Of a stretch of DNA of 64,000 nucleotides, positions 36,442 through 44,745 are shown in pieces. Within the stretch, counting starts at the first letter, position 1; every line of letters starts with the position of its first letter. Origin of the DNA: Phyllobacterium lublinensis. Lineage in GTDB: Bacteria; Pseudomonadota; Alphaproteobacteria; Rhizobiales; Rhizobiaceae. A program made the translations under genes and the position numbers. Under the pieces are notes generated by a model. That model was given only the letters and a program-made list of their open reading frames with translations, had not been told where the DNA came from and ran no database searches. The DNA lies in assembly GCF_020164435.1 (NCBI RefSeq), contig NZ_JAIUDQ010000005.1, positions 124,001-188,000 of the forward strand. Direction: 5' to 3'.

Positions 36442-38055
36442 CTATTTACCCTTCTTCTTCGACGCATTGAATGCATCGACATAACTGCGGCCGACCGCAC
36501 GAACCGCCCTGCCAATATCGTCGTAGACGTCGTCGGTAAGGTTGGCGAAGGAGACCCTTACGCTCCAGTTGGGCGCATCGAATCCGCCGCCGTTGAGGAG
36601 CACGATCGCATGGTCCTCAGCAAGCTTGAACACGAGGTCGAGGGGATGAACGTTCTTCTTCAGCCACTTCACCATGTCTTCGCCGATATACCGGCGAAGC
36701 CAGAACTCGAAATCGATGGTACCGTAATAGTAGGCAAAGTTCGGATTCGGCTGGACGTCAAGCGGCAAGCCCTCAAGCAGGCTGTCCACGCGGCTGTGGC
36801 AGATATCCATGCAAGCCTTCTGATACAGCTTTTCGGTGTCCATCAACTCGCTTATGGAGAACATGGTCATCATCACCTGCTGGGGTAGCGACAGACCTGC
36901 GGTATGATTGAGCGCGACGTCACGGCTATCAGCAACAAGCCGATCTATCATCTTGAGTTTGCGCGGTTCAAGCGTGATGGAGATATAGCGCTTGTCCAGC
37001 GCTTCGAGGTCCTTGGCCGGAAGCTTGCCGAGCATCTCGTCGAGGATGTTCTTCTCATGAATTGCAATTACGCCCAGTCGCCAGCCCGTGCACCCGAAAT
37101 ATTTCGAGTAGGAGTAGACGCCGATGGTGTTTTCCGGCAGTTCGGCCATCAGGGAGCGGAAGCCCGGCACGAAGGTGCCATAGACATCGTCAGTGAGCAG
37201 CAGCAGGTCTGGCCGCTTTTTCTTCACAAGATCAACGATTTTCTTCAGTGAAGAGGAGTCGATCGCCATCGATGTCGGATTGCCTGGGTTAACGACGAAG
37301 AATGCCTTGATCTTCGGATCCTCAAGCTTCTTGATCTCCTCGTCGGAATATTGGAACCTTTGCTCCTGCTTCGCCTTGATATGGACAGCCTTGAAGGCAT
37401 AGTCCTCAAGCTCTGCAATCTCGATATAAGGTGTGAAGATCGGCGTGCCGAGTGCGATCGTATCGCCCTTCTTCAGGATGCGATTGGCGATCAGTGACTT
37501 GAATATATAGCACATGGCGGCGGTGCCGCCTTCCACTGCATAGAGGTCGAATTTGCCGGGCGGAACCTTGTCGCCGCACATTGCCCACATCAGGTACCGA
37601 TGTGCGACCTGTTCGGCATGAACCAGCATACGGTCGGGTACGGGATAGTTGTCGCCGATGATCGAATCGGCAAGTTCGAAAACGAACGCGTCGGGATCAA
37701 ACCCGAACGCTGTCACTGCGTGATCGACCATCTTGGACAGGAAATCCGCGCCTTCCATGTCGGCGTGCTTGTCGAGCCAGACCTTGAACCTTTCGGCGAT
37801 GTCTTTTTGTTGCGGCATTCCGGCGACACCGGCCGTTGGATTGTCCATCGTACGGCGGGATTCTGACAGGGCGAACTGTCCGAACAGGAAGAAGCCTTCG
37901 CGTGGCCTTGTCGCGATCCAGTTTGGATTGCCGCGTCCCGCATTGAGCAGGACTTGGGTGGACTTCTGGGAACTCCGTTTGGCTAGCTTGATCAATGCAT
38001 CCTTGATCTCGAACGGGCTCATCTTCTCGTAGTCGCGGTAGTCGATCTTGGACAT
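36442..38055 (-). CDS. aspD: Bifunctional aspartate transaminase/aspartate 4-decarboxylase
   Basis: A 537-residue class I/II PLP enzyme of the AspD group. The family opening KMSPFEIKDALIKLA...LLNAGRGNPNW and the PLP lysine in YSYSKYFGCTGWRLG match L-aspartate beta-decarboxylases, which convert aspartate to alanine and CO2. The length fits the family (about 530-545). I place the start at ATG 38055 (MSKIDYRDYEK), preceded by GGGAGGAATCGCC; ATG 38070 is a possible earlier start. It diverges from an AspT antiporter gene, the classical partner: aspartate in, alanine out, with proton consumption generating proton motive force. High confidence in class; the physiological role here is inferred from the neighbours. 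Confidence 0.92.
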   Translation of the reverse strand: MSKIDYRDYEKMSPFEIKDALIKLAKRSSQKSTQVLLNAGRGNPNWIATRPREGFFLFGQFALSESRRTMDNPTAGVAGMPQQKDIAERFKVWLDKHADMEGADFLSKMVDHAVTAFGFDPDAFVFELADSIIGDNYPVPDRMLVHAEQVAHRYLMWAMCGDKVPPGKFDLYAVEGGTAAMCYIFKSLIANRILKKGDTIALGTPIFTPYIEIAELEDYAFKAVHIKAKQEQRFQYSDEEIKKLEDPKIKAFFVVNPGNPTSMAIDSSSLKKIVDLVKKKRPDLLLLTDDVYGTFVPGFRSLMAELPENTIGVYSYSKYFGCTGWRLGVIAIHEKNILDEMLGKLPAKDLEALDKRYISITLEPRKLKMIDRLVADSRDVALNHTAGLSLPQQVMMTMFSISELMDTEKLYQKACMDICHSRVDSLLEGLPLDVQPNPNFAYYYGTIDFEFWLRRYIGEDMVKWLKKNVHPLDLVFKLAEDHAIVLLNGGGFDAPNWSVRVSFANLTDDVYDDIGRAVRAVGRSYVDAFNASKKKGK

Positions 38056-38456
38056 GGCGATTCCTCCCACCCTGTTAACATTCGCACTAGATCATACGGT
38101 GCGGATCTCTCTTGATTCAGTGTGGGTCGGGGCCAGGCTCAGAGGCGAGAATCACAAGGACATCGCGCAGACAGTATTGGCACCACTATCCATTCTGAAG
38201 AACAACAAGAATCCAACAGCGGAAAGACTGTAGTCATTCCGTCCCAAAAGCATGCAGGCAGTCCCAACGCAGCAAAAATTCGGCTTTACCCAGTAACATC
38301 CGTAGATAGATATTTACCATTCGCTCCCAATACTTCCGCTTGGAATCGTGTACACGACCGTGTAGACTTGTCAATACAGTAGGGTATTTGGGGAGAACGA
38401 TTGCGCTACCCGCAAATTGCCGGGTCGCCACATATCGTTCGGATGTTGGGGGCATC
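38056..38456. promoter_or_regulatory. Divergent promoter region between aspD and aspT
   Basis: About 400 bp separating two divergent genes of one metabolic cycle. No ORF is convincing. TACACG-AC-CGTGTA at 38351-38364 is a perfect 6-bp-arm inverted repeat about 93 bp before the aspT start and could be an operator. Several A/T-rich stretches may hold promoters, but none matches consensus well. The length suggests regulated expression. Confidence 0.4.
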
Positions 38457-42987: not shown

Positions 42988-43053
42988 GCGCCGGGCCGCG
43001 AAATCTTAATGGCTGGCGTTGTTTGAAGGTGTCCGCGGGCGGAGGGGATAGCA

Positions 43054-44745
43054 ATGGGTTGGTTTGAGCAATTCCTGATCAAATATCCGGAACTTGCCGT
43101 GTTTCTTGCCATCGGTATTGGCTACATGATTGGTGGCGTGAAAGTCCGCGGCTTCAGCCTTGGGCCCGTGACCGGTTCCCTTTTCGCTGGAATTCTCATC
43201 GGACAGTTTGCTCACGTGCCGATTGCAGGCATGGCCAAATCGTTTCTGTTCCTTCTATTCCTGTTCGGCATTGGCTATTCGGTCGGACCGCAATTCCTGC
43301 AAGCCCTTCAACGGGATGGGTTGAAGCCTGTAATGCTCGCCGTGGTCGTCTGTGTAACAGGGCTGCTCACGGCCATCGTCATTGCCAAGGCGCTTGGGCT
43401 TGACCCCGGTTTTGCGGCGGGGCTCGTTTCGGGTGCGCTCACGGAGAGTCCAGCGATGGGCACGGCCACCGAGGCCATAAATGCGCTTCCGCTTATGGAG
43501 GATGAACGCGCACGGTTGGTGGCGCACGTCGCGGTGGCCGATGCTGTCTGCTACGTCTTTGGTGCTGTTGGCGTTATCATGTTTTGTAGCGTGGTCGGGC
43601 CACGATTGCTTGGCATCGATCTCACTGCCGAGGCGTTGAAGCTGGAGCAGGAACTGGGAATCAAGCGAACGACGGCCGGGGTTACGTCTGCGTGGCATAA
43701 GTTTGAATTGCGTTCCTACCGGATCGCGCAAGGTTCGCCGGTCGCAGGACTATCCATAGCAGCGGCCGAGGCAAAACTTCCCGAGCACCGGCTCTTCATC
43801 CAGCGCGTGCGGCGCGGGGCGTCCGTTTTCGAGGCGACCCCCGAGTTCGTTTTGAGCCCTGAGGACGTTGTTGCAGTATCTGGCCGGCGAGAAAGTCTTG
43901 TGCAAGTGCTCGGTCCCCTCGCCGCGGAAGTAGAGGATCGCGAGCTCCTCGACATCCCGGTATCAGTTGCGGACGTGCTGGTAACCAGCCCGTCTCTGGA
44001 TGGCAGGAGCATCGAGGACGCCGCCAAGGAGGATTGGACGCGGAGCCTCTACTTGCGATCCCTCACCCGCGGGAGCCAGGACCTTCCGCTTGCACCCGGC
44101 ATCGTAATGCAACGTGGCGATATCCTCCAACTGGTGGGGCCAGAGGCCGTGGTTGCGAGTGCCGCCAAGCGCGTAGGCGTCATTATCGCGCCGACGACTG
44201 CGACCGATTTCGTCGTCCTCGCGATCGCAATCTTCCTTGGCGGGCTTGTCGGCGTGCTCGTCACCCTGCCTGTCGGTGACATGCGAATTTCCTTGAGTAC
44301 CAGCGTGGGAACCTTGCTGGCAGGGCTGTTGGTCGGGCATTTGCGCACGCGCTTCCCCCTCTTCGGTCGCATACCGGATGGAGCGGTCTCTCTGATGACA
44401 GCACTCGGTCTTGCCGCATTCGTCGCAATGACCGGCCTCCATGCCGGCCCCATCTTCTTTACAGCCATCGCGGAGGCGGGAGTTGGCCTGCTTTTCGGCG
44501 GCATGGTCGTTACCCTGATGCCAATGTTTGTGGGGCTTTACTTTGGACATTACCTTCTCCGCATGAATCCGATCCTGCTGCTGGGTGGGCTGGCAGGAGC
44601 GCAGACCATGACCGCCGGCATGGCGGCCGTTCAGGATCGGTCCGGGAGTCCGGTAGCTGTCCTCGGCTATACGCCGGCAGTTCCTATTGGCCATATCCTG
44701 CTTACAACCTGGGGCACGGTGATCGTGGGCATCATTGCCGCATAG
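43054..44745 (+). CDS. AspT-family exchanger (copy 2), possible partner of the decarboxylase
   Basis: A second 563-residue AAEx-family transporter with the same order as copy 1: membrane domain (FLLFLFGIGYSVGPQFLQ, GLVSGALTESPAMGTATEAI), central TrkA_C-like region, second membrane domain (LLLGGLAGAQTMTAGMAAVQ). Substitutions from copy 1 at motif positions (for example GARTTTASLG against GAQTMTAGMA, and GSQTISASMG against GALTESPAMG) suggest different substrate choice. ATG at 43054 follows CGGAGGGG and lies 66 bp after the decarboxylase stop, so the two are probably cotranscribed. Proposed role: exchange of a basic amino acid for its amine or another product; this is inference. Confidence 0.88.
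   Translation: MGWFEQFLIKYPELAVFLAIGIGYMIGGVKVRGFSLGPVTGSLFAGILIGQFAHVPIAGMAKSFLFLLFLFGIGYSVGPQFLQALQRDGLKPVMLAVVVCVTGLLTAIVIAKALGLDPGFAAGLVSGALTESPAMGTATEAINALPLMEDERARLVAHVAVADAVCYVFGAVGVIMFCSVVGPRLLGIDLTAEALKLEQELGIKRTTAGVTSAWHKFELRSYRIAQGSPVAGLSIAAAEAKLPEHRLFIQRVRRGASVFEATPEFVLSPEDVVAVSGRRESLVQVLGPLAAEVEDRELLDIPVSVADVLVTSPSLDGRSIEDAAKEDWTRSLYLRSLTRGSQDLPLAPGIVMQRGDILQLVGPEAVVASAAKRVGVIIAPTTATDFVVLAIAIFLGGLVGVLVTLPVGDMRISLSTSVGTLLAGLLVGHLRTRFPLFGRIPDGAVSLMTALGLAAFVAMTGLHAGPIFFTAIAEAGVGLLFGGMVVTLMPMFVGLYFGHYLLRMNPILLLGGLAGAQTMTAGMAAVQDRSGSPVAVLGYTPAVPIGHILLTTWGTVIVGIIAA

What the first reader, a model, noticed from the sequence alone, without database searches (positions are those of the whole stretch)
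36442..44745. Compound aspartate/basic-amino-acid decarboxylation locus: aspD diverging from aspT - large decarboxylase - aspT-like
AspD plus AspT is an established proton-motive cycle (aspartate in, alanine and CO2 out). Here the divergent AspT gene is followed by a decarboxylase of the Orn/Lys/Arg group and a second AspT-type exchanger. The layout suggests two decarboxylation/antiport cycles in one module, one for aspartate and one for a basic amino acid, both consuming cytoplasmic protons. I know the classical two-gene aspD-aspT operon; I do not recall this four-gene form as a characterised system.
Basis: partly seen in the sequence, partly recalled or inferred. Interest (0 to 1): 0.7.

Follow-up and report, generated by a model that had tools for sequence, protein, structure and literature searches.

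The report
Twin decarboxylase–exchanger module in rhizobia
A soil bacterium carries two enzymes that strip CO2 from amino acids beside two exchange transporters; one pair is the known aspartate-to-alanine system, and the other couples an enzyme family of unknown activity to the same kind of transporter, which hints at what that family does.

Summary
All four genes are there: aspD, then divergently aspT1 – large OKR-like decarboxylase (DC) – aspT2. AspD and AspT1 pass curated cut-offs; AspT2 passes by 1.3 bits. DC meets no curated lysine, arginine or ornithine decarboxylase model. Its best solved relative is Rv2531c of M. tuberculosis, of unknown activity.

The DC–AspT link is conserved: an AspT gene adjoins DC in 65 of the 80 relatives kept and in 8 of 8 drawn genomes with a close DC, but in 0 of 15 with a distant DC (about 40–51% identical). 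In 22 of 41 chosen DC genomes no AspD was found, and in all 22 DC has an AspT beside it: DC–AspT is a pair of its own.

The "basic amino acid" idea is disfavoured. Of 13 conventional OKR loci, 5 have an AdiC/CadB/PotE-type antiporter and none an AspT; of 82 close-DC loci none has such an antiporter. DC has Asn and Gln at CadA Glu526 and Glu663.

Best reading: two decarboxylation/antiport cycles, Asp→Ala (AspD/AspT1) and a second, probably acidic, substrate (Asp→β-Ala or Glu→GABA; DC/AspT2). DC's substrate and an acid role are inferred. The searches named found no paper describing the module.

The parts
36442..38055 (-). aspD, aspartate 4-decarboxylase
   Evidence: TIGR03801 773 bits, cut-off 435; 519 bits to solved aspartate beta-decarboxylase 2zy2; start ATG 38055 chosen over GTG 38070
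38457..40148 (+). aspT1, aspartate:alanine-type exchanger
   Evidence: TIGR03802 707 bits, cut-off 547; tree clade that includes AspD-paired Ruegeria AspT
40162..40184 (+). 10-bp hairpin in the aspT1-DC gap, perhaps a terminator or processing site
   Evidence: z -1.6; 13 of 200 shuffles fold as well, so weak; perfect hairpin of 7 or more pairs in 6 of 23 relatives
40276..42987 (+). DC, Rv2531c-like PLP decarboxylase of OKR fold
   Evidence: OKR_DC_1 235.9 bits; 735 bits to 9n0o, that is Rv2531c; PLP-site residues kept
43054..44745 (+). aspT2, second AspT-family exchanger
   Evidence: TIGR03802 548.3 bits against 546.95; own clade, sister to AspT1's
44763..45452 (-). MarC/NAAT-family membrane protein, convergent neighbour; recurs beside aspT2 but membership in the module is uncertain
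   Evidence: TIGR00427 115.8 bits, cut-off 99.2; seen in 9 of 82 loci: L054, L055, L075, L078, L079, L083, L098, L103, L104

Best explanation
A double decarboxylation/antiport module. Cycle 1 (known for relatives): AspT1 brings in aspartate(1-) and releases alanine; AspD turns aspartate into alanine and CO2, using up a proton, and the exchange moves charge. Cycle 2 (inferred): DC, an Rv2531c-like PLP decarboxylase, removes the alpha-carboxyl of an amino acid that an AspT-type carrier imports, most likely an acidic one (aspartate to beta-alanine, or glutamate to GABA); here AspT2, perhaps also AspT1, exchanges substrate for product. Both cycles would alkalinise the cytoplasm and add to membrane potential. 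Shown: gene identities, the conserved DC-AspT pairing independent of AspD, the absence of basic-amino-acid antiporters, and the altered putative substrate residues. Inferred: DC's substrate, which AspT serves it, and the physiological role.
For: AspT beside DC in 65 of 80 loci (best 80 of 210). 8 of 8 drawn close-DC genomes against 0 of 15 distant-DC ones. 22 of 41 chosen DC genomes lack AspD and all 22 have DC-AspT. An AspT clade of 19 rows is beside DC in 19 of 19 and beside AspD in none. G017: the only AspT found scores 617.5 bits, above the Asp:Ala cut-off, next to DC, with no AspD. No CadB/AdiC/PotE/GadC homologue in 82 loci, while conventional OKR loci show one in 5 of 13 and AspT in 0 of 13. 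CadA Val524/Glu526/Glu663/Ser373 are Gln/Asn/Gln/Arg in 57 of 57 close and 14 of 14 distant DCs. AspT moves Asp(1-)/Ala(0) (PMC9508256, abstract).
Against: No substrate was tested. AdiA, an arginine enzyme, also lacks Glu526, and one of 15 order enzymes does. The residue changes are shared with distant DCs that have no AspT, so they do not track the pairing. Which AspT serves DC is open: two AspTs occur with one AspD and no DC in the stretch, and an aspT1-aspT2-aspD block stands apart from DC in Bradyrhizobium. AspT2 barely passes the Asp:Ala cut-off, so its substrate may differ. An acid role has no general support: HdeA in 8 of 28 genomes, no stress-promoter enrichment.
Confidence: 0.45

Rival explanations
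1. One reading: DC is a lysine, ornithine or arginine decarboxylase and AspT2 has changed to exchange a basic amino acid for its amine.
For: DC belongs to the OKR superfamily and its nearest named models are LdcC and AdiA. AspT2 is only 1.3 bits over the Asp:Ala cut-off and clade III AspTs are well below it (367 and 373 bits), so specificity may have moved.
Against: 0 of 82 loci hold a basic-amino-acid antiporter against 5 of 13 around conventional enzymes. G017's DC partner scores as an ordinary Asp:Ala carrier. Glu526 and Glu663 are replaced.
Confidence: 0.15
2. Both AspTs serve AspD (as a heteromer, or as two affinities of one Asp:Ala exchange), and DC is a neighbour with a separate metabolic job.
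For: Two AspTs with one AspD and no DC in the stretch: L155 and L166. aspD diverging from an aspT1-aspT2 tandem, DC 8-13 kb away, in nine Bradyrhizobium genomes.
Against: DC-AspT without AspD in 22 genomes; AspT2 with DC and no AspD in the genomes of L075, L077, L083, L098, L103 and L104; close DC and AspT co-occur far above background.
Confidence: 0.2
3. DC is a biosynthetic aspartate alpha-decarboxylase that supplies beta-alanine for pantothenate, not an acid or energy system.
For: No PanD family match in the window's own genome.
Against: That genome is 88% complete. Close DC is in only 5 of 150 order genomes, so it cannot be the usual PanD substitute. A biosynthetic enzyme would not need an exchanger. 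PanD in other DC genomes was not tested.
Confidence: 0.08

Closest known systems
AspD-AspT aspartate:alanine cycle (Tetragenococcus halophilus AspT, PMC9508256 abstract; aspD-aspT pairs on Lactiplantibacillus, Sinorhizobium and Azospirillum plasmids)
   Same: AspD and AspT1 are members by curated models and lie together.
   Different: Here they diverge, and a second decarboxylase and a second AspT are added.
CadA-CadB, AdiA-AdiC, SpeF-PotE acid systems (E. coli)
   Same: An OKR-fold decarboxylase next to its exchanger.
   Different: The carrier is AspT-type instead of APC-type; DC is 23-28% identical and differs at putative substrate positions.
Rv2531c of M. tuberculosis (PDB 9n0n, 9n0o)
   Same: 735 bits over residues 45-896; same fold and length class.
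   Different: Activity unknown (PMC12910592, passages). Its gene neighbourhood was not examined here.
GadB-GadC glutamate system (E. coli)
   Same: The predicted cycle (acidic amino acid in, neutral product out, one proton used) would work alike.
   Different: No GadB or GadC homologue in 82 DC loci; DC is of the OKR family.

Membership tests
Aspartate 4-decarboxylase (TIGR03801) | Curated score cut-off (435.1 bits) | tested here: met
   773.2 bits
Aspartate 4-decarboxylase (TIGR03801) | Releases the beta-carboxyl of aspartate | not testable with these tools
   Only sequence: GRGNPN motif in 32 of 32 and SKYFG-type PLP motif in 31 of 32 homologues; their roles are recalled
Aspartate-alanine antiporter (TIGR03802), AspT1 | Curated score cut-off (546.95 bits) | tested here: met
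   706.7 bits
Aspartate-alanine antiporter (TIGR03802), AspT2 | Curated score cut-off (546.95 bits) | tested here: inconclusive
   548.3 bits, over by 1.3
Aspartate-alanine antiporter (TIGR03802), AspT2 | Asp:Ala exchange | not testable with these tools
   needs transport assay
Basic-amino-acid (Lys/Arg/Orn) OKR decarboxylase | OKR major domain and PLP site | tested here: met
   PF01276 235.9 bits; Lys565, His399, Asp487, Trp490 aligned with CadA; the C-terminal domain PF03711 misses its cut-off (23.2 against 24.2)
Basic-amino-acid (Lys/Arg/Orn) OKR decarboxylase | Curated NCBIfam cut-off of a substrate-named model | tested here: not met
   best 168.6 against 968 bits
Basic-amino-acid (Lys/Arg/Orn) OKR decarboxylase | Acidic residue at CadA Glu526 (proposed lysine contact, PMC5607190 passages) | tested here: not met
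   Asn723 in 57 of 57 and 14 of 14; but AdiA and one of 15 order enzymes also lack it
Rv2531c-like decarboxylase family | Full-length similarity to Rv2531c | tested here: met
   735 bits, residues 45-896
Rv2531c-like decarboxylase family | Shared activity | not testable with these tools
   activity of Rv2531c unknown
Decarboxylation/antiport system | Decarboxylase with an adjacent exchanger, conserved across genomes | tested here: met
   65 of 80 loci; 8 of 8 against 0 of 15 drawn genomes
Decarboxylation/antiport system | Induction or survival at low pH | not testable with these tools
   needs mutants or transcript data; HdeA in 8 of 28 genomes

The most novel reading that the evidence does not exclude
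DC is an OKR-fold decarboxylase that works on an acidic amino acid, which I know of in no characterised OKR enzyme (recalled, not searched): an aspartate (or glutamate) alpha-decarboxylase fed by AspT-type exchange. The module would then split aspartate two ways, beta-carboxyl off to alanine by AspD and alpha-carboxyl off to beta-alanine by DC. By homology this would suggest the substrate class of the Rv2531c family.
Probability: 0.3. Interest if true: 0.72.

Novelty: new variant of a known kind. Interest (0 to 1): 0.52.

Why it matters
Decarboxylase–exchanger pairs are a main way in which bacteria resist acid and gain energy, and each well-known pair is tied to one substrate. Here a decarboxylase family of unknown activity, with a solved member, is tied again and again to a carrier type known for acidic amino acids. 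That turns an open question (what does this family decarboxylate?) into a short list of assays. It also describes a recurrent module of plant- and soil-associated alphaproteobacteria for which the searches here found no description.

Tried and rejected
PGE motif as the basic side-chain binder: my first idea was that the Glu in PYPPG..PGE is CadA Glu526. Numbering showed that Glu526 lies elsewhere, so the claim was dropped; the Glu663→Gln change is reported only as a difference.

Acid island: carbonic anhydrase and an HdeA/HdeB chaperone lie near DC in Rhizobium sp. T136. With those proteins as queries only that locus itself was found among 89, and Pfam HdeA hit 8 of 28 DC genomes (2 of the 30 asked for were not held). 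Not general.

General-stress promoter (EcfG-type motif, recalled): loose matches in 5 of 88 operon leaders against about 2.5 expected; none on the aspT1 strand of the window, one loose match on the aspD strand. Rejected.

Structured RNA: only the tRNA and one match below its family's threshold that overlaps it. Island at the tRNA: no second copy of the tRNA 3' end in the window. Sigma-70 promoter and terminator scans no better than shuffles.

Corrected on checking: I first took DC to be far from the aspD/aspT1–aspT2 block in the 14 genomes without an adjacent AspT. One search shows it 8–13 kb away in 9 of them.

Sampling limits: one search kept the best 80 of 210 relatives and is rich in Bradyrhizobium. 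The 41 genomes were chosen by me. Gaps are between stop-to-stop open frames. The 15 distant-DC genomes leave out G271, a partial match not fetched; four of the 15 stretches lie on contigs or contig ends of 7.5–13.6 kb (L037, L039, L042, L173). L020 and L021 (wrong frames) were dropped before the 18-enzyme count. One search used 57 close DCs after a redundancy filter and 14 distant ones (L136 not included). The AspT tree used 101 of 137 rows after a redundancy filter, left out L144, and is a quick tree with long-branch warnings. Structure prediction and fold search were not run.
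Full report
WHAT IS THERE. The window lies in a 4.53-Mb draft genome in 44 contigs, 88% complete. The closest named relatives of DC are in Phyllobacterium, Mesorhizobium, Rhizobium and Ensifer. The four genes are as described: aspD (-) 36442-38055/38070; aspT1 (+) 38457-40148; DC (+) 40276-42987; aspT2 (+) 43054-44745. A MarC-type gene converges at 44763-45452. Gaps: 401 nt between the divergent starts (with the ATG at 38055), 127 nt aspT1–DC, 66 nt DC–aspT2. The 127-nt gap holds a 10-bp hairpin of weak significance, with a perfect hairpin of 7 or more pairs in 6 of 23 relatives. 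The genome has no other AspT over the Pfam cut-off.

IDENTITY. AspD and AspT1 are clear members of TIGR03801 and TIGR03802; AspT2 is borderline. DC has the OKR domain and a PLP site aligned with E. coli CadA S221, H245, D330, W333, S364, H366 and K367. It is only 23-28% identical to CadA, AdiA and SpeF and far under the curated cut-offs of substrate-named models. Its best solved relative has 735 bits (9n0o), which a 2026 review names as Rv2531c of M. tuberculosis, a putative amino acid decarboxylase whose activity was not clarified (PMC12910592, passages). The structure paper is not held.

HOW OFTEN THE PAIRING OCCURS. A scan of one genome per species found 210 relatives; the best 80 were kept. 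In 65 of 80 an AspT gene lies on DC's strand within 400 nt; 42 of 80 hold two or more AspT genes and 22 of 80 a full AspD. Of the 15 exceptions, L133 has aspT2–aspT1 diverging from aspD, with DC next. The genomes of the other 14 all have AspT1 and a second AspT. In 13 of these 14 the two form a tandem with aspD divergent; this block is 8-13 kb from DC in 9, on a short contig without DC in 2, and not within reach of DC in the stretch taken in the remaining 2. The fourteenth (L065) has aspD–aspT1 in one direction and its second AspT elsewhere. One of the 14 AspD genes carries an in-frame stop (G502). So "aspD diverging from aspT1–aspT2" exists as a three-gene block, and the window has DC between the two transporters. 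The window's order with aspD immediately divergent is also in two Phyllobacterium loci (L054, L055), and with a spacer of about 2 kb in L081, L101 and L134.

IS THE DC–AspT LINK REAL, AND SEPARATE FROM AspD? In 150 genomes of the order, five have a close DC (68-100% identical); all five have a strong AspT hit (over 240 bits) next to it. Two of the other 145 have such a hit, G099 and G130 (Fisher 4e-8, not corrected for kinship: three of the five share a genus). AspD was found in 1 of the 150, the window's own. Adding family and phylum draws, 8 of 8 close-DC genomes (60-100%) have DC–AspT (G000, G017, G035, G112, G143, G164, G199, G236), against 0 of 15 with a distant DC of about 40-51% identity. 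In 41 DC genomes that I chose, 22 have no AspD, and in all 22 DC has an AspT beside it. In the AspT tree a clade of 19 rows is beside DC in 19 of 19 and beside AspD in none. DC–AspT is thus a pair in its own right.

WHAT DOES DC ACT ON? Three lines speak against a basic amino acid. (1) Partner: AspT exchanges aspartate(1-) for alanine(0) (PMC9508256, abstract). In G017 the only AspT found, next to DC, scores 617.5 bits, over the Asp:Ala cut-off, with no AspD found. (2) Missing partner: no homologue of CadB, AdiC, PotE, GadC or GadB at E 1e-4 in 82 loci. As a control, 13 loci around conventional OKR decarboxylases of the same order gave an APC antiporter in 5 and an AspT in none. (3) Residues: CadA Val524 and Glu526, placed at the lysine by docking (PMC5607190, passages), are Gln721 and Asn723 in 57 of 57 close and 14 of 14 distant DCs; Glu663 and Ser373 are Gln862 and Arg571; Pro530 is Arg727. 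In 18 conventional enzymes Glu663 and Ser373 are invariant, Glu526 is kept in 16, and position 530 varies. Limits: AdiA also lacks Glu526; the changes are shared with distant DCs that lack AspT; positions in space were not checked; clade III AspTs score well below the Asp:Ala cut-off (367 and 373 bits), so their substrate may differ from aspartate.

MECHANISM. Most likely two proton-consuming, charge-moving cycles share the locus: Asp→Ala (AspD/AspT1), and a second acidic amino acid→neutral product (DC/AspT2), with aspartate→beta-alanine and glutamate→GABA as the leading choices. No PanD match in the own genome fits a beta-alanine product, weakly. Which AspT serves DC is unsettled: AspT2 occurs with DC and no AspD in the genomes of L075, L077, L083, L098, L103 and L104, but also in tandem with AspT1 and AspD apart from DC. 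Two AspTs with one AspD and no DC in the stretch exist too.

ROLE. Low-pH survival or energy gain is inferred from the type of system. A T136 plasmid stretch has carbonic anhydrase, DC, aspT, aspD and an HdeA/HdeB chaperone, but HdeA is not a general companion. Recurrent neighbours are a SulP transporter (46 of 89 loci), PPK2 (41), DUF3300 (36), AI-2E (34) and DUF2950 (28), each against 0 of 8 distant-DC loci. This may be a stress-gene neighbourhood, but the sample is biased to Bradyrhizobium.

LITERATURE. Searches for AspT with decarboxylase terms and for Rv2531c listed no paper whose title or abstract start describes this module. One search lists three papers with both "aspartate-alanine antiporter" and "decarboxylase", judged by listing only; searches list none. 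Three rhizobial acid-stress papers were searched inside for decarboxylase and aspartate terms without a relevant passage. The library holds open-licence papers only.

VERDICT. The basic-amino-acid reading is disfavoured. It is a new variant of a known kind, of interest mainly because it gives the Rv2531c-like family a testable substrate class.

Noticed in passing
G000 contig C25, L175:631-933 (-): A 101-residue fragment 95% identical to DC residues 715-815 on a 3.9-kb contig: a second, truncated DC copy or a stray contig in the draft genome.
   Followed up: partly
window 36100-36189 and L034:4989-5078: A tRNA-Ser (tga) and an RlpA-like gene lie beside the module in the window and beside DC-AspT in G017, of another family; perhaps a shared insertion site. 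Only 2 of the stretches looked at show this closely.
   Followed up: partly
Close-DC loci, e.g. L113:8059-9786 and L112:13237-14118: SulP-type transporter in 46 of 89 and PPK2 in 41 of 89 close-DC loci, 0 of 8 distant-DC loci; SulP lies directly before DC in several Bradyrhizobium loci.
   Followed up: partly
L155:4986-10141 and L166:6189-11313: Two tandem AspT genes followed by one AspD on Burkholderia and Caballeronia replicons, without DC in the stretch.
   Followed up: no
L160:4065-5672 and L034:5223-6941: A TPR protein with a conserved N-terminal domain diverges from DC; its relatives lie in 21 of 89 close-DC loci. A possible regulator.
   Followed up: no
L167:7792-9689: A 52-residue AspT1 remnant (90% identical) abuts an intact AspT2 on a Bradyrhizobium plasmid, like a decayed aspT1-aspT2 tandem.
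   Followed up: no
L114 (MAG named Candidatus Eremiobacteria): AspD, AspT1 and DC together in a draft genome labelled as a different phylum: transfer or misassigned contig.
   Followed up: no
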